Shown one piece after another: positions 519-64,000 of a stretch of DNA of 64,000 bases. Source of the DNA: Owenia fusiformis. Lineage: Eukaryota; Annelida; Polychaeta; Sabellida; Oweniidae. How positions within the stretch are numbered: the stretch's first letter is position 1; each line of letters starts with the position of its first letter. The notes beneath the pieces were generated by a model. It had not been told where the DNA came from and did not search any database. It saw nothing but the letters and a program-made list of their open reading frames with translations. The stretch spans positions 9,265,278 to 9,329,277 of the forward strand of contig CAIIXF020000008.1 in assembly GCA_903813345.2 (NCBI GenBank), given 5' to 3'. Both the position numbers and the translations under genes were made by a program.

Positions 519-3500
519 ATGTTACTATGGATATATACAACGGTATTTATTTGTGCGGTATTTAATACAGGTAGGTGTACATCTTTTACTTCTGATTCAA
601 AAAAGGATGATCCTTATAGTAATAAATGATGAAATTATACTTGACCTTTAAAGGATTGGTATCGATATGGAGAACTGAATTCAACAACGTTTTTCTCTTA
701 AACCAAGCATTTGAATACAAAGTTTCAGCATGGGTACAGTTTTTGTCACCCCTTACCTTTTAAACAGGCCACATTACCTTTTTTGAAGCTCTTTGCAGTG
801 TTTTTATTACTAAACACCAAAACATTGCGCCATGCAGATTTAGTATTGCAGACGTTCGCAAAACGTTTTCAAATTTTATATTCTCTTTTTAATCTTAAGA
901 ACATAATTTTTACCAAAATCAATTGATGTCATACTTAAAATGCAGTTATGTGGTAAAAAGCAGAAAATATATATTACTAAAAGTTGTTTTTAGAAAGCAA
1001 CCTTGTGTTACCCCAATTTAGAGGGAAATGCCCCTGTTACAATCAAAAATGAAATATATTTCCTTAATAAGGGAAGTTATTACTTTCAAACGATATATTC
1101 ATTTATGTTCATTTTGTGACGGAGTACCAGACAACGACACTATTGGCTTTTAATGTAAGAATCTTTCCATTAAAGGATCTCATTTTTCCTTCACATGTTT
1201 TTCTTTTCCAGTCGTTATCGACGCCGCTCAGAAGAAGAATAAATTTAATCTACGGGCGTTCAAACGAGCTCCTCCTAGGAGACAGAACGACCCAGGCCCA
1301 GGTAAGTTGTAAGGTTATGAGTTAGAAGAATAAAGAAACCTCAACACTTTGCGTGTGTATATAGGAAGAAAAATGCAGTGGACTAAAACGTACTTTCTGT
1401 TCAAATATACAACATTGGTTATGAGCATATCATCATTCCAGAAGTAGTGACATATCATTACAGTCTCCACTTTTTGAGGACGGTGTTCGGTGCTAATGCC
1501 TTGTTCAATTTTGGAGTGTTCCATTGAGTTAAATTCAATTTCAGATGGTCCAGGAGATTGTAGGGCAAGATATCTGAGTGGTAACCCACACACTAACGAT
1601 ACTGTGAGCAAATGCAAGTACTATGAATGTAACGGAGGAGTATACACAAAAGTCAATTGTCAAAATGGATTGGAAGTGTTTGGTGATCTGAGAAAAATGT
1701 GGAAAGAGGACCGGAGCGGTACAGATGTATATCCCTGTGTGAAACACAGTGTGAGCTGTAAGAGAAAAATCGCTGGCGAGGAAAGAGGACAAATACGTAA
1801 GTATGCAGTTTGCAGTTTTCTATGCAGTGTGAGAGGCCATTTATTCGTGAAAACATCAAATGAAATTATCAATCATGCTTGAGAATGATAATTAGTTTTG
1901 ACACTGCAATTACACTACACTACGTGAAATAAGTTTGGAGGAACTCAGGAACTAATCTGTAGCTCCAACAAAAAATACTTTAAGTAAACTCTTTTCCTTT
2001 GTTCTCTATACAGAGAAAGTGTGAGATTTACACAATGGGTCAATAGTAAAACACCAAAACACACCGCCATCTTTCTAACAACTCAACACCTATGACTTAT
2101 CTCAACCTTTACAACGTTTACTTTTTCCTCTATAGCGGACAGGGTAGTAAAAGTGTGTGGAATTGACCTTGTTTGGGCTGTTGACATATCCTGCTCAATC
2201 CACCCAGATAATAAAGAGAAGGTGAAGAAGTTCATCAATAAAGCGGTAAGAAGCATTCCAGTCCGGGCACAATACTCCAGGGTGGGGGCGTTTACCTTTT
2301 CTGACAAGATCTACAACGTAGCATATATGAACCAATACCTTCGACAAGGCCAGGTAAGTTTCTTCAGTAGTGTCCTTATGTTCTCTAGGGTGACCTACAC
2401 CATTAATATTATAGCTGTTTATAAATTAGTTCCTCGTGTCTAGATCGTCATTATCTCTACAAATAAGCATTAGATCAAACTGCGGCATTTCAGGTATATG
2501 TGATTTTGGTAACAGTCAACCATGTAAGGGACTTGTCATTTTATAGAACTATTCCATTTAAATGACTTCACACTCTGTGTTGCTTTTGATTTATATTCAT
2601 AATTTTGATAAACTATCGTTGTTTCTCATTTGAAACGCTGATAGCTTATGAAAGCTCTGGCAGCGATGCGTCTAGAGCCAGACCAATGTGCCACGATGAC
2701 GAATGAAGCACTGAAGGCGGCCAGGGAAATTTATTTCAACGAGGAATTTGGCGCAAGAAGTGGAAGACAAGTAAGCATATGATTTCAGCCATGGTCTCTT
2801 TCTTCTTGCCTGGAATTTATAACTGACCAACTAGTACATTCTGGCTAATATTTTCGATTAATCTCAGCGTTACTAAACGGCCTACTTTTTATTCACATAC
2901 CATGGGGACATACAATGCAATTATAACTCGTGCTATCCTTCGTTTGAAATATAGACACACGCCTCGGAGCAATGTTTTTTCTTCTTCGTCATAGGTTCAA
3001 TTTTTGATTGGCTCTGACTCAAGAACCATCCGAAAGTTGGATTTTAATCCTAGGATTTTTCAATTTCATAAAAATGTCATCATGAAACAAACATTAGAGA
3101 CTTACAGTAGATATTATCATACAATTGTATAATTGAAAATAAACAGCAAATTTGCATGTTTTAAACGAATTGCTGATTTAGATCATATAATTTTTCGCAT
3201 CATGGCCTCTCTGTGTCATCATTATAGCAGTATTGTGCCCCAGGGGTCTGTTTTGGAACCCCTACTATTTCTAATTAATATTAACCACTTATCCGACAAT
3301 TCTCTACTTGAACTGTTTACTTGAGTTTGAACCTTACTCAATTCAAAGGAAAGCATATTTTCTATTGAATGGAGATAAGAAATTTGGACATTGAAACAAA
3401 TAAAAAAACTGATTGAAATCACTGCTCACTATACTTTTCAAGCTATACAAAGTCTGGGACATGGTAATTTTTAACATTAGATTTTGATACCATCACTTAG

Positions 3501-4059
3501 GTCCGGGGAACAAGCAAACCAAACAACAACAAAAAAAGAAAAAATCTTCTCTGAACATTTTGTGTATTTCTAAATATCAATTTTTTATTTATCAACATTG
3601 TTCCAATTGCCGATAATGTTGTCTTGTCAACAATGGCAATTTGTACATATGTAATCTATTGATTTGTAGAAATAAATGTGAAGTAAGCCTACGTAAAAGA
3701 ATTATAGCAGCATTGGAAGATTACTAGTATGAAAACGTAATATCCCTTTTTTCTTTGATTATTTACAGAAGGCACTAATAGTATTGTCTGATGGGTTCAC
3801 ATATCCAAAAAAGTTCCAGGAGGATACGTTTCATCAAGCAAAACTTAACCACAAGAGGGGCATACAAACGTTTGTGGTTGGCTTACCGAACGATAAACTA
3901 GCTCAACAGAACGCAGGGGATAAAAATGCTGCATTTGCAGGCATGGTTGAATGGAACGCCATTGCTTCTAAACCTGAAAATGTTAAAACAATGCGATCAT
4001 TCGATGAACTATTCGATGTTGTTTCGGACATAATAAAAGCTGCATGTTTTGAATTATGA
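519..4059 (+). CDS. Secreted six-cysteine plus VWA domain protein, gene A
   Basis: Six exons: 519-570, 1212-1301, 1545-1796, 2136-2353, 2645-2770, 3769-4059, giving 342 residues. All introns are GT-AG and frames join cleanly (phases 1,1,1,0,0). Residues 1-17 form a hydrophobic signal peptide. Residues 18-47 are a basic, proline-containing linker. Residues 48-131 carry six cysteines spaced like a diverged chitin-binding type 2 (peritrophin) domain. Residues 132-342 form a VWA domain with the metal-site motifs DISCS, TMTNEAL and LSDG. Secretion and a matrix or adhesion role are inferred; VWA plus chitin-binding combinations are known in molluscan shell-matrix proteins, but this order (Cys domain then VWA) is not one I can name. 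It is the first of three tandem paralogues. No transmembrane segment is visible. Confidence 0.85.
648..930 (+). repeat. Truncated copy of a TIR element in gene A intron 1
   Basis: The segment from 648 (TTGGTATCGATATGG followed by AACTGAATTCAACAA) matches the terminal repeat of the element at about 27575-28110. Only one end is recognisable, so this looks like a truncated copy. The right boundary is approximate. Confidence 0.45.
1436..1510 (+). repeat. Dispersed MITE-like repeat (TGTCACCACC family), deleted copy
   Basis: Shares the core 'tagtgacatat...ttacagtctcca' and 'gacggtgttcgg' with copies near 24.7, 41.98 and 48.42 kb, but lacks the central third. Lies in gene A intron 2, directly before exon 3. 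Confidence 0.5.
3226..3320 (+). mobile_element. Non-LTR reverse transcriptase remnant
   Basis: The + frame reads VPQGSVLEPLLFLIN, close to the canonical VPQGSVLGPLLFLIYIND block of LINE reverse transcriptases, and stops soon after. It sits in gene A intron 5. A short, decayed fragment with no recognisable ends. Confidence 0.65.
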
Positions 4060-4558: not shown

Positions 4559-5263
4559 ATGGAGATGTTTTGGATTTACTGGATTGTATTCACATATCTT
4601 TCAAAGTCACTAGGTAAGTGTAGCTAAAGTCAAGGTAGTCATCATTTTGTTGAAAAATCTGAAAATCAAAGTACAAATTACCCAATGATTAATTTAACCC
4701 AGCTCCATGGATATCAGGTTCGATTTCGGGTGGATTAACTTGGCTCAGCTAATTTGAATTATTGAATTATTCTAACAGACAATAATGAATCATATGTATT
4801 CATATAATATTATATTATCATACTTTACATCTCTGTTTTAGAGGCAGCAAAGTTCTTCATTCCAAAGTTACAACTACCAAGAAATCACGACCCTCTTTTA
4901 AACAACAATGACGTTTCAAACCCCGATTTTTCAAGAAGTAAGATACATTAGCTTATGTCACGAGACCTTTTTGAGATATCAGGTATTCTATACTTATAAC
5001 ATAGTTTTTGCACTTAAAACTGTCATTGGATTGCAACCTAAAAAATATAATGGTTTAAATATTAATGATCACATACATCAATATATTGTAACCATGTTTC
5101 TCTTGTAGGATGTGTGTCAAAATATTGGTTTGGGGACCCTTTAACAAACACAACTCATGGAATATGCAACTATTTTGTATGTAATCACGGTATATATACT
5201 AAAACAGCATGCCCAAGTGGACTTAGTGTACTTGGGTCATTAAAAAACCGATGGCATAAAAAG

Positions 5264-5268
5264 AGAAT
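5264..5268. repeat. Left target-site duplication of foldback element
   Basis: AGAAT directly precedes the left inverted-repeat end (AGTGCAGTCAGAATG) and recurs at 9502-9506. Confidence 0.85.
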
Positions 5269-5799
5269 AGTGCAGTCAGAATGTGGGTTTCGGCGTGCGT
5301 TCAGAGGGATTTTATGAGACATAATTTTTCATGTTACTACTATGATTATACATATTTATATGGATTATTAGATCTTAGTTTTTCAGCTTTTAGATTTTGT
5401 GGCCATTTTACCCCCCATGGGCTAAAATTTGGACCCCTACTATAAAATTGGGCAAGAACTCAAAAAATACTCAGTGGAATGTTTCCAAATTACTAAATTA
5501 TATTGGTATAGGCTTACTAAATATATGATAAAAATTTCATGTCACATGGTTAAGTGGTTGCCATGGAAATGGATAAAACATGCCCTTCGAGTGTCAATTT
5601 TCAGGCCAATTTTTCAGGACTGACAGAGTCATTTCATGCATATTTTGTCACCAATGTGTTAGGAAGGGTTAAAATGTAAATAGAAAACTTCTATAATATA
5701 TTAGCAACAATTGCATGTAAAGATCAGTCCACAAAACCTCAGATGTTGGCCTTGTATTGGTCCATGACTTATACAGGGGTCTATTTCATAGACTCGAGC

Positions 5800-6260
5800 T
5801 CCCACATTGGATGGATGCTATAACTTTTGAAATAATGGAGATACAGGTCTCATTTTTTCAAATCTTCATAAATGGTTAGTTTTAAGTATTTTATTATACT
5901 TTGGGAGCTGACATATGATTGGTTGCCATGGTAACCGGGGTTTTAGGGAAATTCTCACCCTTACATTGGATGGATGCTATAACTTTTGAAATAAGGGAGA
6001 TACATGTCTCATTACTTCAGATCTTAGACAATGATTGATTATAAATGTTAAATTAGACTTTGGGAGCTGAAATTTGATTGGTTACCATGGTAACTATAGT
6101 TTTATTGAAATTTGGACCTCAATTGATAAATGGTTTAACATTTGAATTTAAGCAGATACAGATATTATCATTTCAGATCTTAAAAATTAATTAGGTTTGT
6201 GTATTGAATTAGACTTTGTAGCTTAGCATTTACTTGATTGCCATGGTAACCATGTTTCGT
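5800..6260 (+). repeat. About 156-bp tandem units in the left arm, with RFX-like palindromes
   Basis: The phrase 'ttggatggatgctataacttttgaaataa' type segment recurs at about 5809 and 5965, with a third decayed unit at about 6120. Each unit ends in a palindrome such as GGTTGCCATGGTAACC (5931-5946), GGTTACCATGGTAAC (6080-6094) and a variant near 6237. Together with the right-arm copies these form an internal subterminal array. Confidence 0.8.
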
Positions 6261-8509
6261 CGTCATGGTACCCTTAATTTTTTGTTCCATTCTTACCTTC
6301 ATTTGAGAATGTTCAATTCACAACATGTTATACCGAAATGCTCAAAATTGTCATTTTGCTCTTAATTTCAGCAATTTATCCTGTATGTCTGACAGTATAG
6401 CCTCATTACATTCTACTAGTTCTCACACATATTCTGACTCCCAACTTGTTTTACTCATCATTATGGTTTTCATCTTCCACAATTGCCTCTTAATTAAAAA
6501 TATCAACAATTTCTATTGGAAAGAAGGATTCTTTTGACCATTCTTGTGTTAAAGATTTGTCAGGGAATTCACAGTTCATTCATGCAGTGTTGGGCATAAT
6601 GGTAGAGCTGGGTTTAGGCTGGTGGGAATGTGTCCATATATAGGTTTGATAATTTACCCTCTTCAAATGTGAAAAAATGTCAACACCTTCATAAGTGAGG
6701 GCAGCACTGTTCTGTTTTGTTCTGTATCTCATGGGAAACAGCTCATCTCATAATCTATTAGTGGCAGTTTTTTTCTATTTCTGCTATATTTTTGCAGGTG
6801 AACAATTCAACTTTCGACTTTATGGTAGCGGGAATTCCTATATTGTTTCCTATTGAAGAAAATAACTTTAAGAATTGTTTGTCTTCCGTTTCAGTTGATT
6901 TACTTTTCCTTTGTTCAGAAAGGCACTGGAGGAATCTGATATAGCTAATATAGCTTCACACAGGACTTGGTCCTAGGTTTGCAGCTACAGGGGTTGGGTT
7001 GAGCTTCTGACATCTAATGGGACAGAGTTCACATCAGTTGAGCTTCTTAAGGTTGTTTTCTTCATAATAGGAATCAATATAGAAATTCCTGACACAAAAA
7101 AATTCAAAGTTGAATTGTTCACCAGTAAAAGTACAGCAGAATTACAAAACTATATTTGTAACTTACATCAATAGATAACTATATGAGCTGTTTCACATAA
7201 GATACTATTCTCCAAACCAGAACAGTGCTGCCCTCACTTATGGAGGTGTTGACATTTCAACTCTTCCCATCTTTCAAGATTGGTCCTTCACTGCTTTCAT
7301 AGCAGCTAATATAATGGAATGAATTAAATGATGAACTCTTCTTCCTTGTAATGATTGCTCATTATAACATTTGAAGAGGATGGATGATAAAACTTATATT
7401 TGGAAGTGGAAACATTACCCCCTGTCTCCCGGGAGTTCACTGTATATAAACCTTGAGGGGATCCTCAGCTCAGGTGGGGTACTTTTGACATTTGATATGG
7501 CAATGGACCCAAATTTTAGGATCTGGTATGAGAATGCTCTCTAAATTATGACTTGAGAGGTATGGCAATGGTATTTGGGAATGGTCGTGAAAAGTATGTT
7601 GCCCCTCACTTGTTGTACATGTATGGCATTGATCTAGTATATCCTTGATGTGTGGTTGCTTTTGGTTGTTTTCCTTAAAGATCTGCCTTCTCGAGGCATT
7701 AGAAATTTTTGAATGGCCATGTTTTCACATCTGGATATTTGGAATGACACTGTTCCTATATTTGGGCATTTGGTATGGCTTTTGGGCATTATTTTGGTTG
7801 ATATCGGAACACATTCAAATTTGACAGATTGGATGGGAACATATTGATATCTGAGGGTTCAGCCTAGGATCGCAGCCAAATTTTATATTCAGTGAACCCA
7901 TAAGGACCAGTCTTAACCCATTCTGCCAAGTCCAATACTGCATGAATGGACTATATCCCCTGAGGATCCTTATCTCCAGAATGGTCAAAACAATCCTTCA
8001 TTCCAACAGAAATTGATGTTAAGAGGAAATTGTGCTAAATGAAAACAGTAATGATGAGTACAAATGAACAAATTAGGAGTCAGAGCTTTTGTAAGAACTA
8101 GTCGTATGGAATAAGGCAATATTGTCAGACATACATGTATTGTTCACTAGTATTTGATATTTTATGAGCCAAATAATGTTTGCATCTCTAGTATTATTGA
8201 GTCATAAGCATGTAAATCATATAAAATAAAAAAATGATAAAAATTAAGAATAAAATGGTAACTTTGAGCAATTTGGTATTTTATGTCATGTATTGACCTA
8301 TCTAGAATAAAGGTGAATCTGAAAACGAAAACAGCAGTTACCATGACAATGAAACATGGTTACCATGGCAGACAAATAAATCCTAGCTTCCAAAGTCTAA
8401 TACAATACACACATATTATTATTATCTTACATCTGAAAAGATTATATCTTATCTGCCTGTATTTAGGAGTTATAGTGTTCATCAATTGTGGAGGTCTGAA
8501 TTTCAACAA

Positions 8510-8970
8510 AACCCTGATTTCCATGGTAACCAATCAAATTTCAGCTCCCAAAGTCTAAATCAATACTTAAAATCAATCATTGTCAAAAATCTGAAACAAT
8601 AAGACATGAATCTCCCTTATTTCAAAAGTTATAACATCCATCCAATGTCGGGGTCAGGATTTCCTTAAAACCCTGGTTACCATGGCAACCAATCATATAC
8701 CAGCTCCAAACGTATATTAAAATACTCAAAACCAACCATTTATGAATATCTGAAAAAATGAGACCTGTATCTCCCTTATTTCAAAAGTTATAGCATCCAT
8801 CCAATGTGGGGGTCAGAATTTCCTTAAAACCCTGGTTACCATGGCAACCAATCACATGTCAGCTCCCAAAGTATAATAAAATACTTAAAACTAACCATTT
8901 ATGAAGATCTGAAAAAATGAGACCTGTATCTCCATTATTTCAAAAGTTATAGCATCCATCCAATGTGGGA
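8510..8970 (-). repeat. About 160-bp tandem units in the right arm, with RFX-like palindromes
   Basis: Inverted counterpart of the left-arm units: the 'ttatttcaaaagttat' segment recurs at 8618, 8778 and 8938. GGTTACCATGGCAACC is present at 8675-8690 and 8833-8848. Confidence 0.8.
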
Positions 8971-9501
8971 GCTTGAGTCTATGAAATAGACCCCTGTATA
9001 AGTCATGGACCAATACAAGGCCAAAATCTGAGGTTTTGTGGACTGATCTTTACATATAATTGTTGTTAATATATTATAGAAGTTTTCTATTTACATTTTA
9101 ACCCTTCCTAACACATTGGTGACAAAATATGCATGAAATGACTCTGTCAGTCCTGAAAAATAGGCCTGAAAATTGACACCCGAAGGGCATGTTTTATCCA
9201 TTTCCATGGTAACCACTTGACCATGTGACATGAAATTTTTATCATATATTCAATTAGCCTATACCAATATAACTTAGTAATTTGCAAACATTCCACTGAG
9301 TATTTTTTGAGTTCTTGCCCAATCTTATAGTAGGGGTCCAAATTTTAGCCCATGGGGGGTAAAATGGCCACAAAATCTAAAAGCTGAAAAACTGAGATCT
9401 AATAATCCATAAAAATATGTATAATCATAGTAGTAACATGAAAAATTATGTCTCATAAAATCCCTCTGAACGCACGCTGAAACCCTCATTCTGACTGCAC
9501 T

Positions 9502-9506
9502 AGAAT
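9502..9506. repeat. Right target-site duplication of foldback element
   Basis: AGAAT, after which the coding frame of gene B exon 3 resumes (GGGCTTAGAGG). Confidence 0.85.
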
Positions 9507-12059
9507 GGGCTTAGAGGAAATGCCCTGTAAGAAACCACACCAGAAATGTAGGACGCGGATAGCTGCGGGTAGTGGCAACGAAACAGACGGACGGGAAGGC
9601 GTGTTGTGTACGTATTCATGTGTTTTATGTTATACTGCTTTATACTTTTGCAATTTCGGTTGAAAAGAATAGTTTTTATAAACTTCAGGCGAGGCAGTTG
9701 CCTCTCATGCCTCATAGCTAGCCTCGCCAAAGCACTCAAAGCTTTCATATGATGCAAATGTCCAATTAATCATAGTGAAAATATTAGAGGTCTATAAAAT
9801 ACAATGGTTACTATTTTAAGTTCAAGTCCACTGCACTTTATGCATAAGAATATCAATAGGTGTTAAATTACATGGCATATATAACTTGATATTAAGTACA
9901 ATTGTAATCAATAAAAGTGTATTAATCCAATATTTTCATTTCAGTTACTATAACTGAATCAGCAAATACCATTTTTAGATTTATCTTAATATGCTCCGAT
10001 AGTTTACGTTTTAGATATGATGTATAGTAGAATTATTTTTTTTCAAACTAAAGATATAGCCCTTTGAAAAATGCTTGCCATATCTTACGTGCTCTTTTCA
10101 ATGCTTTTCAAATACTCTAATGTACATAGATGTACGTGTACTTTTAAATTTATTGATATGTTCTTAGCCAGAAAACCTATCAAAGTCTGTGGGATAGATT
10201 TGGTCTGGGCCGTGGATATATCATGTTCTATCGATCCGGACTCAAAGAAGAAAGTTCGGAACTTTATTGTGAAGGCAACAAATAAGATTCCCGTAAGAGC
10301 TCAATATTCGCAAGTTGGAGTCTTGACGTTTTCTGAAAAAGTATATCACGTGGCATATATGAATGAGTTTAAACGTCAGGGTAAGGTAAGAATCTAAAAG
10401 ACCATTGAGATTAGATCAGCTAAATGTTCCTCTATATTGTATCTTTGAATGTCAGATGCTGGAATCACCAGGACATTGCACGCAATATGATGGCATACAT
10501 GGTGCCAAAACCTCTTGCATATCACCAGTCTAATTGTACGCTTTATAGTTCTAACATTTCGTGAATGCCAGTGGACCGATGGGCTGTATAACTCCTTTTA
10601 AAGTGTCCCACTGATAGTCACTACTGAGTACTAATTTATGTTTCTATTTTTCCCTATGTTCTTTCTGATTGTGTAATGATTTCGGGATTTGTTTTCCAAT
10701 AGCTCATGGACCAGATAAAGAAAATGAAACTTGAACCAGATGATTGTGGTACGGTTACTAATGAGGCTCTCTATGAAGCTAGAACCAAGTACTTCTCTGA
10801 AGAGTTGGGTGCTCGAAAGAAGAGAAAAGTAAGTACCTTTATCCAAGACCTTCGCCATTGGTAGTATCCAAAATATGACAGCCCCTTGATAATTCACCAT
10901 ACCGTGTACTACGCCACGATTATACCAGTTTCTTGACAAAACTAGCAAACAGTAAAGCACTAACCCTTCCCGTCAGAAAATATTTTGGATAATCAAATGT
11001 TTAAGTCATGCTAAAACCGCCTCTTCTAATTTCTTGGATAATGTATCAAGGTATTCGACCACGTCAAACGTGAATATTTCAGTAATTCTCCTTAAGGAAC
11101 GGGGTCAACCACATTATAATTCGTTCAATGAACTTCTGTTCGTAAACCATAATCTCACTTCGCCTTGATTATTTACTAATAAAAAATAATGAGATACTAG
11201 TAATTGTTGTGGATATAAATTGATACACTACTACAGATCGATTTACTGAAGATTGTTTGTTTGAATTTGAGCCTGGACTAACAGATCTCAAACTAGATAA
11301 ATAATCAATGAAAATCTCTCATTTGATTCATTGATTTGTCCAATGAATGAAACGATCAAGTAATTTTTTTCTTACTTATGGTGGCAATATGCTTTATTGA
11401 TATAAAATGCTTGACTGGCAGTTTTTCATAATAATTTGCTTTGCTTCAAATGGCGGCCATTTATTTTGGCTCGGCTTGACGGATTTATATGCATAATAGA
11501 GACTTCAAGCTTGCCATGATTTTCACAACCTAAACGTGAACAGAAAATTTAAGCGATGCATTTGTATGGGCGATTGGTCATACGTATAGGTTGGCGTTTC
11601 GATTTTATAGGCAAGCTTAAACTAAATATTTGCTTCTTCGTGGGGCTGCTTCTTTCTAATCTTGCCAATCGTATTTATGATTTCAGAAAGTTCTAATTGT
11701 TCTTTCTGATGGTTTCACATACCCCAGATCCAACATAGAAGATACATTCAAACAAGCTAAAGACGTCCACAAAGCTGGAATAGAAGCATTTGTGTTAGGA
11801 ATGCCAAATGCTAAACTTGTTGAACAAGGAGCCGATAATATTTTTGCCGGGCAAGAAGAATGGGAAGCAATAGCTACTAAACCAGAGAATATCTTTAAAC
11901 TCACATCCTTTGATGATCTTGGCAAAATTATTACTAGAATTATTAAAGAGGCCTGTCTGACAATTGGTATACCAGGCTCCAACTGAGGAAACGACAATGG
12001 AAATCACTATTCTTTCAAGCAAACATATGTGGATACACGTCGTAAATGCATAGAGGGCC

Positions 12060-15052: not shown

Positions 15053-17020
15053 CGTGTCCAGGGAGGAGTAGATTCCTGGCTGGTGTTCCAGGTAACGATT
15101 CAGTTATAGGACCATGTGACTACATAAAGTGTGTATCTGGTCAATTCAAGAGACTTCCTTGTCCTGCAGGCCTAGGCACCAGAAAAAAGTTTATGCAGGC
15201 CTGGGCACAGAATCAGACAGGCGATAACAAATACCCTTGTGTGAAACGAACACCGGCTTGTAATTTAGAACTTGGCCTATCAGATAGTGAGTTTTTTCAT
15301 TGAACATTAGGGTGCACTTTTTGATTTGTTCAATTTTATCCCAGTTTCAGCGATTACCTTCAGTGTAAGCTCGTTTAGGTTCTTTCATTTGAAATTAAAA
15401 GATACTGTGTGAAAATTAACAGCAACTTGTTTTGCTTGGGATTGTTGCTCAATGCCTCAGTCACATTTCCTCTACGGCGGTCGTACGTTGGCCGTAACTT
15501 CCCAAAATCGACATAGAAATCTACTGCTTATCCCTATATTTTATGCTGTATATTTCTCCCTCGATTTTGAGAAGCTACGGCCGCCGTATGGTTGCCGTAA
15601 TTTCACAAAATCGACATGGAAAATCTACTGCTTATCCTTATATGTTATGCTGTATACTTTCCCGATTTTGGTAAGCTACGACCGCCGTATGTTTGCCATA
15701 GATCAAATGTTACTGGGGCATTAGTAGTTGTGTACCTCTGTTTTCAGATCCCGTCAAGATATGTGGGATAGATTTGGTCTGGATTGTGGACATAAGCTGC
15801 TCCATATCCATAGAGGACAAAATGACCGTGAAGAGATTTCTAAAAAGGGCAGTCGCACAACTCCCAGTGCGTGTGCATTTTACAAGAATAGCGATGTTCG
15901 GATTCTCTGAGAAAATCTATCACGTATCGTTTTTGAACGAATATCGACGCCAAGCTAAGGTAACTTCAATCCCCACTGATGCTATTCATTAAGGTGTGGT
16001 TATATTTGGCAACACAAATGAATTTGAACCACACAATGTGATGTATATATAAAGCTGTACTGAGTTCGAGTATGTCCCAATTTTTCTTTCTATGAAAAGT
16101 TTCTCACTTATTTTTTTAACTACTGTCAACCACCCAACTGTATCAGTCAACATGAAAATTTGTAGAACAACCAAAATGTCTCTAAGGAACATTTACTGAA
16201 CATTTCATGGAAAAATATCAATTATTGATAAAGTTAGAGCATATAGTGCATTACTTCTGGGACAACCCTCGTAATCTTCGATCAATTTTGATATGTAATA
16301 CCTTGATATTGAGTATGATCAGTAGTCTAGCCGGAGTATTTCAACTGATACAGAATAAAATAATTGTTGTCCTCAAACAATTTATAGCTGATGGAGGCAA
16401 TCGACGGGATGACGTTAACGCCGACTGAGTGTGCGACATATACCTTTTCAGCCTTGGAGGCGGCCCGAAATGTATACCTTTCCCGGGAATTTGGCAGGAG
16501 AAAGGCTCGCAAGGTAGATTTTAATTACTGATATGTTTACTTGTTCATATTGTTTCAAGCTCGTTTTCTAGATCTAGGTTTGTGATCTGTAACGATTTCC
16601 AACTCTGTTTTGCTGAAATGCGATTACATTGTTTAAAAATCGTTGAACTATCGGCAAAACATTTTGCCAATTCAACTAAGATAAAATGAAAGCATATCAC
16701 TGTTACTTCGTATCCATGTCAGAGAAAATGCCAATTCCATTCTAATATCCTTCCAGGCTGTTGTAATAGTCTTGACTGACGGATTTACGTGGCCACAAGA
16801 GAGGAAGCTAGAGACGCTTGAACAGGCCCGACTTCTGCATAAAACTGGAGTTGAAACGTACGTCGTGGGCCTACCCAATATGAAACGTAACGTCTCGGCT
16901 GGGAAAGATGAATGGGAAGCGATTGCGACCACTCCTGATAAAATATATGACCTCCAATCATTCTCAGAGCTACAGGGTATTATGGATGATATCTCTAGAA
17001 GTGCTTGTTTCATCTTGTAA
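15053..17020 (+). CDS. Six-cysteine plus VWA protein, gene C (5' exons not found)
   Basis: Exons found: 15053-15286, 15748-15959, 16388-16513, 16757-17020, open in frame (phases 1,0,0), 278 residues. The first is the Cys domain, with PCDYIKC and YPCVKRTPAC aligned to the same positions as in genes A and B. The next three form the VWA domain, with DISCS, a Thr-containing TYTFSAL and LTDG retained. The third exon is 126 bases, identical in length to A and B. The first visible exon begins in phase 1, so signal-peptide and linker exons are expected upstream. The C-terminal exon is shorter than in A and B (88 codons against 97 and 100). Sequence differs clearly from A and B, so this is an older duplicate. 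Function inferred as for gene A: secreted metal-dependent adhesion or matrix protein. Confidence 0.8.
15471..15705. repeat. About 102-bp tandem repeat, 2.3 copies
   Basis: Units begin CTACGGCGGTCGTACG (15471), CTACGGCCGCCGTATG (15574) and CTACGACCGCCGTATG (15676), and share 'tactgcttatcc'. In gene C intron 1, just before the VWA exon; related to the single copy near 12.82 kb. Confidence 0.75.
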
Positions 17021-17844: not shown

Positions 17845-18025
17845 CTTGTATTCGTGAATGCAACTAACGCCTGTCGGCTATCGGATTGACCTAGTATTTT
17901 ATGACCAACTCATTAAATATGAACAGAATGGTGGCATGTACTATTCATATTTAAATGAGTTTCCAGTAAAATAGTAGATTAATCCGGTAGCCGACACAGG
18001 CGTTAGTTGCATTCGCGAATACAAA
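17845..18025. repeat. Hairpin MITE, copy 2, adjacent to copy 1
   Basis: Begins CTTGTATTCGTGAATGCAAC and ends GTTGCATTCGCGAATACAAAC-like. Internal arms share CGCCTGTCGGCTA / TAGCCGACACAGGCG. Same family as the neighbouring copy, five bases apart. Confidence 0.75.
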
Positions 18026-23041: not shown

Positions 23042-24895
23042 GTTAATATCAATGATGCAAAATATCGCTACACACAAATGAATTAGTTTTGTGGATTTTA
23101 TTAGGTTTAAGTAATATCATATTTATCTATCAGCTGAAATCAGAATGATAAAAAAATTCACATTTTCTCCCAAATAAACAAGAATAATTGATGAAAGTGA
23201 AGCACTACACTGATTCTGATTTATATTGATCAATAACTTATTTTAATTTATCTTTAATTGCAAGGCTTTAAGCTATTAAACATTGTTTTCACAGTTTTCC
23301 TGGCCTATTTCCAGATCCTGGATATGTTTCTGATAGTGTAAATTGCTTTGTCAAAAATGTGTTATATGTCATAATAATGCACTGGTGAAAATTGGAAATA
23401 AATATAATTTAAACATGTTTCTAATATATTCCATGTTGGGTTGGATGTAAAGCCAAAAAATACTAGACATGTGCCATTTTAAGTGTGTTTCTTTTTTCTT
23501 TGAAGATCCTCAATTCATTGACTACTGAGAGTGAGAATCCCAGTTAAGAGTTTTTAAAAATCCATTACTTTACAAAGTTTGCAATTTTTGACACACATCT
23601 TAACATGGTTTTTTAAAATTTCTAAGTTGACATTTTGTGTAAAGGACCAATGAGAATGAACCAGTTCAAAATCTTGAGAAAATAAAAAATCTGCAAGAGA
23701 AAAGGAAGGGGGTGCTATATTGTACAGAACAAATTACTGCTGGGATTAAGACTGAGCATTTTCTTCACATACCTGGTATGCACACCCGGGTATGCACAGT
23801 GAGGCAAAGTTTGGGTTTACATGTTGTACATGCGTCTGTAGAGACAAATAAATAATCACTTAATAACATGATATAATTATTTCATTTTCACCCCTTTATA
23901 TTTCCAATATGACCGTACACCCTCATCTACAGTATACAACCATGTTACATATTTTTCTCTACAATTAGAGTAAAACCTGTCTAAAGTGACTGGGACTTTC
24001 TAAATGTTCTCACAATGAGGGAATCACATTATACTTGGAGGAAGTGTAAGATGTCACTGTTTAGTTTTTGTGACTGAAATTCCATACAAAATTTCCCTGC
24101 TCATCACCCTTATTTCCTGATATTGAGAGAATAAAAGGTCAGTGAGGCAAATTAGAAGGTGGTGTAAAATTACTACCGAAGTTGATTTTGAACTTTGATA
24201 TCCAGACATGACTTCAAAATCACCAAAAAGTCGAGTGACATTCTGCATTTCCTCCAAGCTTAGGAAGTTTCATTTGGAAGCCAATGGGATATTCAAGATG
24301 ACACTGAACTGGACACATTTTATTATTAAAGTGTTCCATTTAGAAAGATGTTCAAATAAGCACAGTATTATATTAAATGTGCCACTGTGAATTTTAAGCG
24401 ACTAGACTGTGTTCAACTGTCGATATAATACAATATTTCATATTATATGTGAGGGATAGACTGAGTTTCGATGTATGAACTTGAATTTAGTGCCATGTCA
24501 CATATAAGTACATAGGACAATTCAGGTTTGGACTGATCATTCCCCAAACATCATGATGTCATCACATAGCTTAGGCTGATCATTAATACCGTTTAATCAT
24601 GCTATTTTAGGTTCCACACTGTTTAATTTGTTCAGAAATTGGAAGACAATACGTACATGTACAGTACAAGGCATTAACATGCAAAGTGTCACCACCTGGC
24701 ATTTGTTACAGACGCCGAATGCCGAACACCAACTACCAAACACCAACTGCTGTTCACAAACAAGTTGGAGACTATAACAATATGTGACAAGTTCTGGTAG
24801 TGACATAAAATACAGTGTATCAGATGTATATGTGATTGAAAAAGAGGCTTCAGATCAAACAAAGACTGCTAGTTTGAAATAAATATACATGTAAT
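23042..24895. other. Intergenic region between convergent P450 and GCC1
   Basis: No supported coding sequence; short ORFs have no family features. Contains one MITE copy (24648-24806). The 3' UTR of GCC1 presumably ends in its upper part. Confidence 0.5.
24648..24806 (-). repeat. Dispersed MITE-like repeat (TGTCACCACC family)
   Basis: Minus-strand copy, bounded by GTGTCACCACCTGGC and GGTAGTGACATAAAAT, which are short inverted ends. Inner core (CTATAACAATATGTGAC) shared with the copies at 26.85, 34.6, 41.98, 46.4 and 48.4 kb. Confidence 0.75.
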
Positions 24896-24904
24896 ATCAT
24901 ATTG

Positions 24905-25330
24905 AATGATTTTGATGAGTTAACTGAATATCCCCACTTCCACACTTTATACTCATGTACTGCTCTCTCCTCTTTAGGGCTGAATTGTAATGATTTTGAT
25001 GATTTACATTGAATATCCCCACCATCATACTATATACTCATGTACTGCTCTCTCCTCTTTTGGGCTGAATTGTAATGATTTTGATGACTTACATTGAATA
25101 TCCCCACCATCATACTATATATTCATGTACTGCTCTCTCCTCTTTTGGGCTGAATTGTAATGATTTTGATGATTTACATTGAATATCCCCACCATCGTAC
25201 TATATACTCATGTACTGCTCTTTCCTCTTTTGGGCTGAATTGTAATGATTTTGATGATTTACATTGAATATCCCCACCATCGTACTATATACTCATGTAC
25301 TGCTCTCTCCTCTTTTGGGCTGAATTGTAA
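24905..25330 (-). repeat. 85-bp tandem array overlapping the 3' end of the GCC1 coding sequence
   Basis: Five units with starts at about 24896 (diverged), 24981, 25066, 25151 and 25236, exactly 85 bases apart, then a partial unit at 25321. The unit nearest the gene (25236-25320) encodes the last roughly 20 codons and stop of GCC1; the others are downstream copies of the same coding segment. As 85 is not a multiple of three, the copies are not an in-frame extension. Confidence 0.9.
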
Positions 25331-28300
25331 TATGGTTGCGATAGCCCGCAACATTTGTTTTTTCCCAGTCGTTTCTTTACAGACCATGTACTGGTACACT
25401 ACGTTCTTTAAATATTCCAAATTTGCACTTTCCCTAGATTTATTACGTTCTAATTTTCGAATTTCCTCCTTTAAAGAGTCAATATGTTCATTAAGTTTTT
25501 CAGCCTTTGCAACTGAGGAAAGCTGTAAGTCTCTTAGAGCACTTTCTGTGGAATGTTTTTGTTTTCGTAAATTCTGGATTTCCACTTCCCGCCTCGCTTG
25601 TTCCTGGTTAAAATGTAATAATGATACCTCCCCCTGGGAGGGTGTATTATGTGGACTGCGAATGAATAGCTGTGAGACTGAAGAAGATTCTGGAGCAGAT
25701 GCACTATCACTTTCTGAGTCACTTTGAGATGTTGCTCTTTTAAATGTAAACCCAGAAGATATGTCTGTGGTGTATGGTCCAGGACTGTTAGACCTATGTC
25801 GTTTTATTGCCTCGATCTCCCGATCTTTTTCTATAAGTAACGCAATAGTTCTATCTCGATGTTTATGTAACTCTTCCTCTAGTTCACTGGCACGCCCTCT
25901 ATAGTCATTTTCAGCTTGTTTCAGCTCTTCCTCATGACGGTCCTGTATACTTGCAATGCTTTTACGCAAGTCTTCAACAGTTTTTCTATGTGATTTTTCT
26001 TCCTCTTCTGAATTTGTGAGTAAGCCACGGATTCTATCCTTGAGCTCCAGCACTTGGTTACGCAACACATCTGTCTCCTTGGCAACACCAGGATCCTGGA
26101 AAATATTCATAGAGACACTAGAATCAAAAAGTTTAAAATAATAGAAAATGAATGTAATTGATTTGCTTATCTGGTTTAAGATTTAATTGTTTGAATGTTT
26201 TCCAATACTGTCAGGAACTATAATAAAATATATTAAATAAAAATCAACTAAGAAACAAATATATGTAAGTGATGATAAATTAAAAATTCAATTTGTAAAA
26301 TGATTTCCTGAATTCTGTTGAAATGGCTTCATGCCAAGATTACAAAAGTGCCCTCTTATCCCCTTATCCTCTAACAATCCCATCTATCAAAGATCTTACA
26401 TTTTTGGAATAATAAATATATTGAGAAGTTCTCCCACTTTCTATCAGATCACCTACCTTTGTCGTTTTAGTCTTCAGTACAGATTGTGCTCTTAATTTAT
26501 ATTTCTCAAACTCTTCTTTGAGACAGGTATACTCCTCTTGGCAGTGTTTGTGTACATTAGTCTCTTCTACCACACTGATGTCAATTGTCTTGAGTAGCTC
26601 TACAACATAGGAAACAATCATTCAAACAGAATCAACTCTTGTATAACCTCATAAAACAAGAATCAAGAGACTTGGTGCAAGAATATTCTGTCTTGTATTA
26701 AAGTGTATTATATTTGGAGTAATTTAAAAAAAAGACTGGTTATAATTTTCTCTTCATAAAATTATCTACATGTGTCTATTTTTTCTTGAAAATCGCTTAT
26801 GAATATGCAATTCTCATTACAATTGACAAATACAAGTCAATATAAACAAGGCATAAACATGCAAAATGTCACCACCGCCACAAAAACTTTGAATACTATA
26901 ACAATATGTCAATTTGTGTGATGCTGACATAAAAATAATAATTTAAAGTACCTTCAACATTAACTGGTTTCTCCGAGCGCTCATTTGCCAACTTCAACAT
27001 GCCTTTTAACTTGACCATCTTCTCAACTAAAGCTTGTATGTCCAGATTCTTATCATCATCATTTAACAGATCAGGGTCATCAGGAGAGGTATGAGCAGCT
27101 CTGGCTAAAGCTGTATTCTCTAAGTCCAACTGTGTGACACGGTCCCGGAGTTTACTAATCGCAAGCTGATCCTGATAGCGTAATCTCTCATAATTGCCAA
27201 CCACCTCAGAGAGTTCCGAGAGCTTTGATTCCAACCCACACACTCGTTCCTCTCCTTGCTACAATCAATTCAATGAAACAATATGTGTGACATAAATGTA
27301 AGAACTGCAGGGGCCCAGAGTCATTTACATGTAGTTTCAATCTCAGCTATTTAACATGAATAGGAAAATATTATTATACCAAAAATAGCATAATGGGCCC
27401 ATATTTCTATGAATCTATAGGATGCACACTGAACTTATTACATGTAAGAAAATGTTTTTCGGTGTTAAAATTGAAGAAATATTTACATAAATAATGTCAA
27501 TCATCCATTATATTGAAGCAATGATAAAAACACTGGTTTAAAGTTCACATGTATTTTTCAAGAAAAAACAAAAATCATTTCACCTTACAAAGGAGTGGTA
27601 CCGATATGGTGAACTTTTTGAATACACGTTTTTCGTAAACCAGTCATAAAAACATTCTGAAAGTTTTACTCATCGTCAATTTAATGGTCATCATTTGGAT
27701 GGTAACATTATAATTTGAAATATATTTATATACTTTTCCCTATATTGTTTCAGAAAACACATAAGACACGTCTTCTGTTCTTGGTATTTCCTTTGTACAG
27801 CTATAATATTATGAGGTCTGAGAAAATGTTGTTTATGCTATTTTGTTCCAACAAGGTTCGGAAAGACATTTTATTTCATTCTCAAGAATTGGTAGAAAGG
27901 AACAAAAAACAATTGCACTAAAAAACAAAAAATGTTAACAAAAATAGTTATATAAAATATAGAGAAATAATTTTTGCATTAAATTGTTGCCAATCGGTCA
28001 ACATTTCATAAAAGACCGTGTTTTTTTACAGAATGTTTTCAATAATTGGTTTAATTGTTGAATTCAGTTCACCATATCGATACCTATCCTTTTCACCATA
28101 AAATATTTTTCTATGTCTGACATTTGACATTAAAATTCAACAAGTACTGGATCAGAGCATCATACCTCTGCTACAAGTCTCATGCTCTCCTCTGCCTTGT
28201 TAGCTCTCATCTGTTCCTGCTGCACTGCTATACGATGATGGGCCTGAAATACATAAAACACTGTTAATCACCCTAGTGAAATAAAATTAGGAATACAAAT

Positions 28301-31300
28301 TCACAGTGAGATGAAAGAATATAGGGCCCATGATCCTTATGTTCATACGGTGCACTGTAGTGTCTCAAATATAAACTAAGTGTGACTTTCTGACCAAAGT
28401 ATGGCTGCCAAGTAGATCCAATGGGCTTCCTGTGTGAGCCAAAAAACAAGGCATATGGTAAACAATACTAACCAAAGAAACAAAAAATAGACGTCTTTTT
28501 ACCCAGCATTCACCTAAAAGTAATCACTTATAGATTTTCATACTAACTTAAGGAACATCCCTAAGAAATTCAATCCATCAAGCAGTTTGCATGGACAGGA
28601 TAAGATTAAATACTGCCACTTGCCAACCGCCAATCTGGCAACTATATCATACCCTTTTTTAAGTGCATTGTTAGAATAAGTGTTTTAATGATCGAATATT
28701 CTACCTTCATCTCAGCCATTTCAGTTTGTAACTGTAGCAACAATGGTGAAGGTTCAGAAGCTTTCTCTTCAGATTGCTTGAGCCTTCTGCGTACTGTTTC
28801 CATCTCTTCATTCATCTTGTCAATTTTTTCTTGATATTCCACAGCAGGGTCAGGCACATCTTTGTACTCTGATAATTTCTCCTTCAAGGTGTCAACCTGA
28901 ATTCAAAATGTTTCTATATAATTACAGATTAAGCACTTTTAAGATCAACATTTTTGATCAAAAAGTCTTTTTTGAAAGCAGGATATTAGAACACTAGAAC
29001 AGACTATGTTATACATATCATTGGAATCCTTTATATAGCATACAATCCCAAATTTTCCCAAAAGATCTAGTGCACTCTCCATTATGATTTCCCCATGAAC
29101 AAAATGAATCATTCTCCTGTTCCTAATTTATATCAATGATCTACCTGATAACTTAAATACCAAATGTTTTATATATGCAGACGACACGTCACTTTACCAA
29201 TCCTTCACAGCTGAAACAGCAGCTGCTAAGAATAATGAATTACAAGAGGATCTAAATAAAATTCTCTTATGGTCAAATACATGGAAATTAAACTTCAAAG
29301 CTAGTAAAAGTAAAGATATGACTTTTTTTAATCCAAGAAAGCGCGAAATTTTGACCCCAGATCTTTCCCTTGGTAATGACAAGTTACCAAGAGTAAACAA
29401 TCACAAGCACTTGGGGTTGATTTTGGACAAAAATCTCACTTTTGACTATCACATTACTGAACTTGTAGCAAGAATAGATAAACTCGTAAATCCGTTAAAA
29501 GTCTTCAGTAAGAAAATAAGTGGAAAACACCTTGAAACAATTTTTAAGTCTTTTATTATGCCACTCTTTGATTATTGTGATATTCTTTACGGATGTGCAA
29601 ATTTGACAAAACTACAACTTTTAGACCGCCTTTACTATAAAGCTGCACTTATTTGTTCAGGTGCCATGCATGGAACATCAACCACAAAAGTGTTGAATAC
29701 TTTAAATTGGCCCACACTCTCAGATAGACGTCAATATCATAGAGCTACCTTTATGTATAGAGCTCACAACAACTTGCTGCCTTCTTATGTTACTGAGATA
29801 TTTGAACCACTAAAAAGAAATCAAACACATGTACTAAGACACCAACTTGACTATATTTTACCAGTTAAATCCAAATTTTATGAAAGATCTTGTATCTCAA
29901 AAACAATATCAGAATGGAATCTACTGCCATCTGATATAAAGAACTCATCTAGCTTAAGCATATTTAAATCAAGCCTTAAAAGAAATATTTTTAACGAAAC
30001 TGTCATTAACTCATCTGAACTGTCCATCTCAAGAAACCAAGAAATTATATTTATCAGAGTACGATGTGATTTCATTTTCAAGGCTCACCTTTACTCGCAT
30101 AACTTTACCAATGTAAATTCCCCCATCTGCTCATGTGGTATTAACAGTGAAACAACCAGCCATGTGATTTTTCGATGTAACTTGAGATTAACATTCTGGA
30201 CTGAATTAGAAAACCAACTAAAAAATATGAATATACAATACTCCCATAAATATAAGACACAACGTGATAAACTTTCTCTGATCCTCAATGGTGATAAAAC
30301 ATGAAGTAGAGCTGAGAATCTGATTGTTTTAAAGTGCAGTGCCATTTTCTTCGAGCGATGTGTAAATGTCTGAAATCCTCCACAAAACAACTTTTATCTT
30401 ATTGTATCTCATTTATTTTAATCAAATATTATTGATTGAATACATTGTATATTGTAATTGTAGAACGTGGCTTATAATGCTAAAAGCACAGCCACTTACA
30501 CTGTATTATTGTATGTATTCTTTGTACAAATGATTAATTTAATAAAAAAAAAAGAAAAAAAAAAGAATCATTTTTAGGTGTAACATGAAGAATACAATGC
30601 CACATAATACTTTGAAAAATATCTAAGCGTTTGGACCCACATGGGCTGAGGTTAAGGTCAGCAAGGATGTATTGACTTGACATTGGATGTGGTCAATTGA
30701 CTTAACATGTGGATATCATCAGATATACATGGGCTGAGGTTAAGGTCAGCAAGGATGTATTGACTTGACATTGGATGTGGTCAATTGACTTAACATGTGG
30801 ATATCATCAGATATACATGGGCTGAGGTTAAGGTCAGCAAGGATGTATTGACTTGACATTGGATGTGGTCAATTGACTTAACATGTGGATATCATCAGAT
30901 ATACATGGGCTGAGGTTAAGGTCAGCAAGGATGTATTGACTTGACATTGGATGTGGTCAATTGACTTAACATGTGGATATCATCAGATTCCAATGGAGGC
31001 CATTGGTTTCTATTGATATTCACAAAAATATCTAAAATGCACTATGACCTGAATCAATTGCAAATTAAATAATTTCACAATATGACACAAATGGTATATC
31101 ACATCAGATGTGCAAATGTGAAGTTTTTTTCCAACAAAATGGCTATAGAAAAATGATTCAAAAGCAACTTTTACACTTATGAAATGCCATACAACTTTGT
31201 AAATTCAAAGATTATACTGTTATGTTTCATTAAGCAATAACATATTTGGATAAGATGTAAGGATGCATAGGATGCAAATGGATTTTGATAGACACAAAAA

Positions 31301-48360: not shown

Positions 48361-48415
48361 ATTTATAAAAATTAATAATCAGAAAGTATGGTATATTTTT
48401 CTCGACTGATTTATT

Positions 48416-48545
48416 ATGTCCCCTCCAGAAGTGGGGACATATTGTTATAAATCTCCAACTTTTTTGAGCACCGTGTTTGGCAGTAGGTGGTTTGCGTCTG
48501 TAACAAATGGTAGATAGTGACATTTTGAACGTTAATGCCTTATAT
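48416..48545 (+). repeat. Dispersed MITE-like repeat (TGTCACCACC family)
   Basis: Begins ATGTCCCCTCCAGAAGTGG, with 'gacatattgttataaatctc' and 'gcgtctgtaacaaatggtag', ending with GTGACATTTTGAACGTTAAT. Just past the ESF1 polyadenylation signal. Confidence 0.75.
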
Positions 48546-63295: not shown

Positions 63296-64000
63296 CTGAA
63301 ATAACATTAGATTAAGTTTTGGATCGATGGGTTGTTTACAATGAAGACAATGATATGTGAAACAAGAGCAAACATGCATCAGCTCTGAATTGCTGTTGAC
63401 TGTATCCAGAAGAGATGCCTTGTTCAAGGTAGAACTTCACTGTTGATCAACTTTTTTTCGACAATTCAGATTTTATTGAAAAGAATTTATGTGAAAGATA
63501 TACTGATGTGAAAATCAGAAAGATTGACTGTTTGGTTATTTCTAGAAAAAAATGCATAATTGATTCAGATTCTCTTTAAAAAATTGTGATCATTCTATGG
63601 GAAACCCAAATTATTTAAAGGGACATTCCTTGCCAGACCATCTCTCTCCTAATTTGGTAGCTATAACCATTATACTTTCCATGTTTAGTAAAACAAGGGA
63701 AAATATTTTGATATGGTCAATATTGATCACTTAAAAATGTAGTGCTCAATTCCAGTAGGCTGCCATCTTTTACATTTTGAATGATCAATATTGATCAATA
63801 TTATTAAAACATTTTCTCATGATTTGCTAAATATGGAAAGCATATGATTATAGGTACCATATCAGAATAGAAATGATCTGGCTAGGAATGTCCCTTAAAA
63901 ATATTTATGAAAATTCACCATCCGGATCTTGAGAAAAAAAACATTGATATCATGAATCAGTGTGAAATATTATTATTCCATTGTACCTGTATATAATACT
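63296..64000. other. Upstream side of the first visible TECPR2 exon
   Basis: Expected to include an intron and perhaps the start-codon exon of TECPR2, but no convincing ATG exon with a donor was found on the minus strand. Contains the MITE at 63616-63897. Confidence 0.4.
63616..63897. repeat. MITE with AGGGACATTCC terminal inverted repeats
   Basis: Left AAGGGACATTCCTTGCCAGA, right TCTGGCTAGGAATGTCCCTT; about 280 bases. Inner inverted segments (TGGTCAATATTGATCA) also pair. Flanks read TTTAA and TTAAAA, so a TTAA or TA target is possible. Confidence 0.75.

What the first reader, a model, noticed from the sequence alone, without database searches (positions are those of the whole stretch)
5264..9506. 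Foldback transposon inserted into a coding exon; the empty site restores the gene
Seen: a 4233-bp inverted-repeat element with AGAAT on both sides. Removing it plus one AGAAT rejoins exon 3 of VWA gene B in frame, brings back two cysteines that both paralogues have at the same place, and gives the same phase-1 donor. Assuming a TA duplication instead produces a stop at once, so the 5-bp duplication is supported by the coding frame. Inference: the gene is disrupted in this haplotype, while its exons downstream remain intact, so the event may be recent or polymorphic.
Basis: partly seen in the sequence, partly recalled or inferred. Interest (0 to 1): 0.8.

Follow-up and report, generated by a model that had tools for sequence, protein, structure and literature searches.

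The report
Foldback transposon splitting a VWA-gene exon
A 4.2-kilobase, hairpin-shaped mobile element without recognisable genes sits in the third exon of an otherwise intact animal gene for a probably secreted von Willebrand A protein; the insertion is well supported but of a known kind, and whether it is recent, variable between individuals or tolerated by exon skipping cannot be told from one sequence.

Summary
A 4,233-bp inverted-repeat element (5269-9501) lies between two copies of AGAAT. Removing it with one AGAAT restores exon 3 of gene B, with the cysteine spacing and 1|1 phases of paralogues A and C; the rejoined six-exon model runs ATG to TGA, 351 codons, without another lesion. The element has no recognised coding capacity and is palindromic almost to its centre: outer 745 bp 96% matched without gaps, inner parts 67-87%, with 159-bp tandem repeats in both arms. 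That is the layout of Drosophila Tetris and Galileo; superfamily unknown. Corrections: the frame excludes a TA duplication but cannot separate 5-bp AGAAT from 3-bp GAA with TA inside the repeat. 'Disrupted' is not 'null': exon 3 is 261 bp with equal phases, so skipping it leaves an in-frame 264-codon VWA protein. 'Recent or polymorphic' is untested; the arms are no clean clock. Simulated neutral decay makes more than about 0.02-0.04 substitutions per site since gene death unlikely. Extra: each repeat unit carries an RFX X-box-like palindrome. New family of a known kind, modest interest.

The parts
5264..5268 (.). Left copy of the target duplication AGAAT (or GAA 5265-5267 if the terminal TA belongs to the inverted repeat); end of the left piece of exon 3 of gene B
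5269..9501 (.). Foldback element, 4,233 bp, no recognised coding capacity, palindromic almost to its centre
   Evidence: no Pfam family better than E 0.1 in the 13 ORFs of 60 aa or more that lie wholly inside it and 2 that cross its ends; no Rfam family
9502..9506 (.). Right copy of AGAAT (GAA 9503-9505 in the 3-bp reading)
5269..6013 (+). Outer left arm, 745 bp, pairs without gaps with 8757-9501 (27 mismatches, K2P 0.037)
8757..9501 (-). Outer right arm
5804..6275 (+). Three 156-159-bp tandem units in the left arm (the innermost diverged, 65% like the first), each with an X-box-like palindrome
8330..8969 (-). Four about 159-bp tandem units in the right arm, each with an X-box-like palindrome
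6119..6874 (+). Inner left arm, collinear with 8492-7044 on the other strand, about 67-87% matched with indels
7044..8492 (-). Inner right arm; interrupted at about 7405-7931 by about 0.5 kb without counterpart in the left arm
4559..4613 (+). Gene B exon 1 (proposed): ATG and hydrophobic signal-like start, phase-1 donor
   Evidence: inferred from ORF and splice signals, no transcript
4842..4937 (+). Gene B exon 2 (proposed), phase 1 at both ends
   Evidence: inferred from ORF and splice signals
5109..5268 (+). Gene B exon 3, left piece (cysteine-rich module)
9507..9607 (+). Gene B exon 3, right piece, phase-1 donor
10168..10385 (+). Gene B exon 4, start of the VWA domain
10703..10828 (+). Gene B exon 5, VWA domain
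11687..11986 (+). Gene B exon 6, end of the VWA domain and TGA
519..4059 (+). Paralogue A, six-exon model, open throughout (342 codons); its exons 1 and 2 are proposed from ORF and splice signals
15053..17020 (+). Paralogue C, the four exons matching exons 3-6, open throughout

Best explanation
A non-autonomous DNA transposon of foldback type, moved in trans by an unknown transposase, inserted into exon 3 of a six-exon gene for a probably secreted VWA protein and duplicated a short target (AGAAT, or GAA with TA inside the repeat). Shown: the element, its palindromic layout, the duplication, the exact in-frame empty site and the absence of other lesions in the gene model. Inferred: mobilisation in trans; a transcript that keeps exon 3 ends at a stop 47-49 bases into the element and would probably be degraded; any remaining product would come from skipping the symmetric exon 3. 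The chromosome sequenced therefore carries a loss-of-function allele or an allele that lacks the cysteine-rich module.
For: Inverted arms and flanking AGAAT. The two halves of exon 3 abut at the same residue of gene A. Joined exon open, cysteine spacing and exon phases as in A and C. Complete model ATG to TGA, 351 codons, with a VWA domain over positions 1-173 of the 174 of the profile, E = 1.1e-25. No coding potential recognised in 15 ORFs, 13 wholly inside the element and 2 across its ends. TA duplication excluded by frame.
Against: No second copy of the element and no sequence of an empty chromosome was seen: no own genome is held and four exact-pattern scans of prokaryote and viral collections found nothing, so mobility rests on one locus. 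The duplication is short and its length ambiguous. No transcripts were available, and exons 1 and 2 rest on ORF and splice signals alone. Three of the element's ORFs have very weak Pfam matches, among them Transposase_24 at E = 0.15 (12.7 bits, cut-off 28.7), which I take as chance.
Confidence: 0.9

Rival explanations
1. The insertion is tolerated because the 261-bp exon 3, phase 1 at both ends, is skipped, giving an in-frame 264-codon VWA protein without the cysteine-rich module; the allele is altered, not dead.
For: Phases 1|1 in A, B and C. The skipped product is open to the normal TGA and keeps the VWA domain, E = 5e-26. Exons 4-6 and their splice sites carry no lesion.
Against: No transcript. 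Lack of lesions is equally expected for a young null allele. The acceptor of exon 3 is intact, so inclusion and a stop may dominate.
Confidence: 0.3
2. The element is spliced out of exon 3 as a new intron, so the full protein is still made.
For: A fair donor-like site lies just inside the left end, 5282 (score 6.7 against 2.8-11.4 for the 10 donors used for the small matrix).
Against: No acceptor in 9200-9607 scores above 4.3, while the 12 acceptors used score 6.0-11.9. The best-scoring of 48 in-frame combinations removes part of the right piece of exon 3 with both of its cysteines. The matrix is small and trained on this window, with one of the 10 donors entered one base off.
Confidence: 0.04
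3. The insertion is old and fixed, and gene B is a pseudogene that happens to look intact.
For: The outer arms differ by K2P 0.037; if they were identical at insertion, each has since collected about 0.019 substitutions per site.
Against: Simulated neutral decay leaves no lesion in the gene in 14.5%, 6.5% or 1.4% of runs at 0.0187 substitutions per site (assumed indel to substitution ratios 0.05, 0.1, 0.2) and in 2.2%, 0.4% or 0.1% at 0.0373. The inner arms differ by about 20%, so the arms need not have been alike at insertion.
Confidence: 0.15

Closest known systems
Tetris foldback transposon of Drosophila virilis (PMC4079207, passages seen)
   Same: Long inverted repeats made of an outer unique part, a variable number of about 220-bp tandem repeats and an inner part; no conserved ORF; no autonomous partner found.
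   Different: Target duplications of 8-10 bp, taken by its authors as a sign of Mutator; here 5 (or 3) bp, units of 159 bp, and pairing almost to the centre. No sequence comparison with Tetris was made.
Galileo, P superfamily (PMC3573991, passages seen)
   Same: Long, internally repetitive inverted repeats; repeat number can differ between the two arms; some copies consist of inverted repeats only.
   Different: 7-bp target duplications; the 7-mers next to the ends here are AGAGAAT and AGAATGG, not a duplication.
IS3EU / GingerRoot (PMC10045372, passages seen)
   Same: TA..TA termini, if the terminal TA here belongs to the repeat.
   Different: Usually 6-bp duplications; here only 3 bp remain in that reading. 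No transposase to compare.
Polinton/Maverick (PMC8097293, passages seen)
   Same: Ends AGT..ACT in the 5-bp reading; inverted repeats of up to 1.4 kb.
   Different: Intact vertebrate Mavericks have (AG)3 or (AGT)2 end motifs, 6-bp duplications and about eight genes; none of these here.
Ginger2/TDD (PMC2836005, passages seen)
   Same: Duplications of 4-5 bp, compatible with AGAAT.
   Different: TGTNR termini and inverted repeats of about 50-300 bp; here (T)AGTGCAG and arms of kilobase length.

Membership tests
Foldback elements (structural class) | Very long inverted repeats that make up most of the element | tested here: met
   Pairing from both ends to about 6874/7044
Foldback elements (structural class) | Tandem repeats inside the inverted repeats | tested here: met
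   159-bp units, three left and four right by alignment; Tandem Repeats Finder counts 1.8 and 3.4 copies
Foldback elements (structural class) | Flanking target duplication | tested here: met
   AGAAT at both ends; exact in-frame empty site
Foldback elements (structural class) | Several dispersed copies in the genome | not testable with these tools
   No own genome held; single copy in the window
Mutator superfamily | Target duplication of 8-10 bp, as used to place Tetris | tested here: not met
   Flanks beyond AGAAT differ: AAAG left, GGGC right; 8-10 bp from PMC4079207. Weakened by PMC10045372, which gives 4-10 bp for IS256 and MuDR taken together, so a Mutator origin is made less likely, not excluded
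P superfamily (Galileo) | 7-bp target duplication | tested here: not met
   AGAGAAT against AGAATGG; 7 bp from PMC3573991
Tc1/mariner (ITm) | TA duplication | tested here: not met
   TA lies at both ends, but the TA empty site puts a stop in the exon
Ginger1/Ginger2 | TGTNR termini | tested here: not met
   Ends are (T)AGTGCAG; pattern from PMC2836005
Ginger2/TDD | Target duplication of 4 or 5 bp | tested here: inconclusive
   Compatible if the duplication is AGAAT, not if it is GAA (lengths)
IS3EU / GingerRoot | TA..TA termini with 6-bp duplication | tested here: not met
   TA..TA possible, but the flanking hexamers AGAGAA and GAATGG differ; features from PMC10045372
Polinton/Maverick derivative | 6-bp duplication and (AG)3 or (AGT)2 ends | tested here: not met
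   5 bp and AGTGCA; features from PMC8097293
Zator (3-bp duplication) | 3-bp duplication and Zator termini | not tested
   3 bp is given for Zator in PMC10045372 and would fit the GAA reading; its termini were not looked up
Any DDE superfamily | Matching transposase in an autonomous partner | not testable with these tools
   15 ORFs of the element and its ends have no Pfam match better than E 0.1; genome not held

The most novel reading that the evidence does not exclude
The element belongs to an undescribed animal foldback family outside Mutator and P (short duplication, repeat units each carrying an RFX X-box-like palindrome), and its insertion into a symmetric exon makes a naturally segregating allele whose product is the VWA protein without its cysteine-rich module, possibly with new RFX-dependent expression.
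Probability: 0.08. Interest if true: 0.5.

Novelty: new member of a known kind. Interest (0 to 1): 0.3.

Why it matters
It is a clean case in which paralogues and the reading frame fix the empty site of a transposon to the base, in an exon whose phases would let the gene survive by skipping. If the allele segregates, it gives a natural knock-out or module-deletion of a VWA gene. The element adds a foldback layout whose ends and short duplication together match none of the families whose features I compared in full (Mutator as used for Tetris, P, Tc1/mariner, Ginger, IS3EU/GingerRoot, Maverick).

Tried and rejected
Tc1/mariner-type TA insertion: rejected, the TA empty site gives a stop. In one search I first computed the TA join with wrong coordinates and got an open frame; one search is the corrected version and replaces it.

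Element as a spliced intron: rejected as unlikely.

Coding element: the 13 ORFs of 60 aa or more that lie wholly inside the element and 2 that cross its ends were scanned, 10 and 5. No Pfam match is better than E = 0.1; three ORFs have matches at E 0.1-0.15 (Myb_DNA-binding, Transposase_24, DUF5056), all far below their cut-offs. No Rfam family at gathering threshold.

Relatives elsewhere: exact patterns of the inverted-repeat end and of the 159-bp unit gave 0 matches in prokaryote genome contigs and viral contigs. These collections are not of animal genomes, so the misses say little. Within the window the element has no second copy: 13 short BLAST matches with E 0.065-0.80, and its 15-bp end occurs exactly only at its own two ends, plus one match with 3 mismatches, 3 in all against 1.9 expected.

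Arm divergence as a clock: rejected, because the inner arms differ far more than the outer ones, as expected if outer arms are homogenised or the arms differed at birth.

Host identity: not determined. Substitution-rate tests on the A, B and C paralogues were not run, as at 44-65% protein identity of the VWA exons they would not date the insertion. A first lesion simulation used exons 3-6 only and is replaced.

Papers: nine searches were answered. The comparison with known superfamilies rests on passages of five papers, not on a search of a repeat library.

Full report
Observation. The window holds AGAAT at 5264-5268 and 9502-9506 around 4,233 bp whose ends are inverted copies of each other. 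The repeat finder gives arms 5268-6118 and 8652-9502, 93% complementary, and a chain of shorter inverted pairs that runs collinearly inwards to 6854-6874 and 7044-7064. A full alignment of the left half with the reverse complement of the right half shows that the element is a palindrome almost throughout: 92-98% identity per 100 bp over the outer 800 bp, then 67-87% with many indels, and 70% over the last, partly unaligned stretch before the centre. The outer 745 bp pair without a gap, 27 mismatches, K2P 0.037. The right arm has an extra 159-bp repeat unit and about 0.5 kb at roughly 7405-7931 with no counterpart.

Tandem repeats. Tandem Repeats Finder reports period 159 in both arms, 1.8 copies left and 3.4 right. 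I aligned seven units, three left and four right. The stretch around GTTGCCATGGTAAC ties for the most conserved 14-base window (mean column conservation 0.94 against 0.80 overall), with another stretch near the start of the unit almost as conserved (0.93). That palindrome fits the RFX X-box consensus (recalled). The window has 34 matches with up to 2 mismatches on both strands against 3.4 expected; 21 of the 34, at 11 places, lie in the element, and 13, at 8 places, lie outside. The copies share descent, so they are not independent; this is a lead only. A role as transposase-binding sites, as suggested for the repeats of Galileo (PMC3573991, passages), is at least as plausible as RFX binding. 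A paper search on X-box, RFX and transposable elements gave a list of 29 papers of which I saw 15 titles and abstract starts, none on such an element.

Coding capacity. Fifteen ORFs of 60-96 codons, 13 wholly inside and 2 across the ends, gave no Pfam hit better than E = 0.1; the three weak ones, at E 0.1-0.15, include Transposase_24, far below its cut-off. No Rfam family was found.

The gene. Exons of three tandem paralogues align piece by piece. For exon 3, the ORF left of the element matches residues 28-79, and the ORF right of it residues 79-116, of the same gene A ORF, so the element sits between neighbouring residues. Joined with one AGAAT, exon 3 is open; all three paralogues have W-x10-PC-x6-C, an acceptor phase of 1 and a donor phase of 1. 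With two proposed upstream exons, gene B reads from ATG to TGA in 351 codons and gene A in 342, each with a nearly complete VWA domain (E = 1.1e-25 and 6.4e-23). The first exons look like signal peptides (by eye). The ORF with the left piece of exon 3 has a sub-threshold CBM_19 match (18.4 bits against a cut-off of 20.1); the A and C exons have none, and no such match was reported for the whole rejoined protein. VWA plus chitin-binding domains recall the molluscan Pif/BMSP shell proteins (PMC11291548, start of abstract in the listing), but the phylum was not established.

Duplication length. Left flank ..AAAGAGAAT|AGTGCA, right flank TGCACT|AGAATGGG. The terminal T and A also pair with each other, so the repeat may be TAGTGC..GCACTA with a GAA duplication. 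Both readings remove 4,238 bp and give the same exon. Only TA gives a different one, with an early stop. Two random 5-mers of the window agree with frequency 0.0017, two random 3-mers with 0.021.

Consequence. Read into the element, the protein ends after 119 residues at TGA 5315-5317; decay of such a message is inferred. Exon 3 is 261 bp with equal phases, and skipping it yields an in-frame 264-codon product with the VWA domain intact. No in-frame splice among 48 that remove the element has two good sites.

Age. With neutral decay since insertion, the chance of seeing no stop, frameshift, splice or start lesion in the rest of the gene is 0.60, 0.46 or 0.33 at 0.005 substitutions per site, 0.36, 0.24 or 0.11 at 0.01, 0.15, 0.07 or 0.01 at 0.0187, and 0.02, 0.004 or 0.001 at 0.0373, for assumed indel ratios of 0.05, 0.1 and 0.2. 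So intactness favours a young or still selected allele but does not show polymorphism. The arms give no independent date, since their inner parts differ about five times more than their outer parts.

Relation to known elements. The layout is that of Tetris (outer domain, about 220-bp repeats, inner domain, no ORF; PMC4079207, passages) and Galileo (PMC3573991, passages). The short duplication argues against P and against Mutator as Tetris was placed there, though PMC10045372 gives 4-10 bp for IS256 and MuDR together (passages), so Mutator is not excluded. Ends or duplication also fail Ginger (PMC2836005; its 4-5-bp duplications alone would fit), IS3EU/GingerRoot (PMC10045372) and Maverick (PMC8097293); Zator, with 3 bp, was not tested. 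I call it a foldback element by structure, superfamily unknown. Presence-absence variation of whole genes within an animal species is known from mussels (PMC7653742, passages), so even a segregating null allele would not be a new kind of event.

Noticed in passing
5557-9213, within the element: X-box-like palindromes (GTTGCCATGGTAAC and variants) at 11 places, four of them perfect matches to the recalled consensus, at least one in each of the seven aligned 159-bp units; 21 of the window's 34 matches.
   Followed up: partly
7405-7931: About 0.5 kb in the right arm without a counterpart on the left; by eye it begins and ends near an inverted GTTCACTG..TATAAA motif, perhaps a nested element (sequence, gap).
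   Followed up: no
30639-30988: Four copies of an 88-bp tandem repeat, 100% identical: very recent expansion or assembly effect.
   Followed up: no
24901-25331: 85-bp tandem repeat, 5.1 copies, 95% matches, overlapping the 3' end of the minus-strand ORF 25262-26182 that codes for a GRIP domain.
   Followed up: no
63608-63906, 17846-18024, 42661-42828, 62589-62807: Four further palindromic stretches of 168-299 bp without BLAST similarity to the element, possibly small inverted-repeat elements.
   Followed up: no
24666-24812, 41983-42121, 46410-46530, 48414-48544: Dispersed repeat of about 120-150 bp in four places, 72-79% identical.
   Followed up: no
60579-62102: Single ORF of 508 codons with a CARD domain and an NHL repeat, a pairing that may mark an immune signalling gene (inference).
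   Followed up: no
29108-30301: Open frame of 398 codons with a weak reverse-transcriptase match, below Pfam's cut-off: probably a retrotransposon remnant.
   Followed up: no
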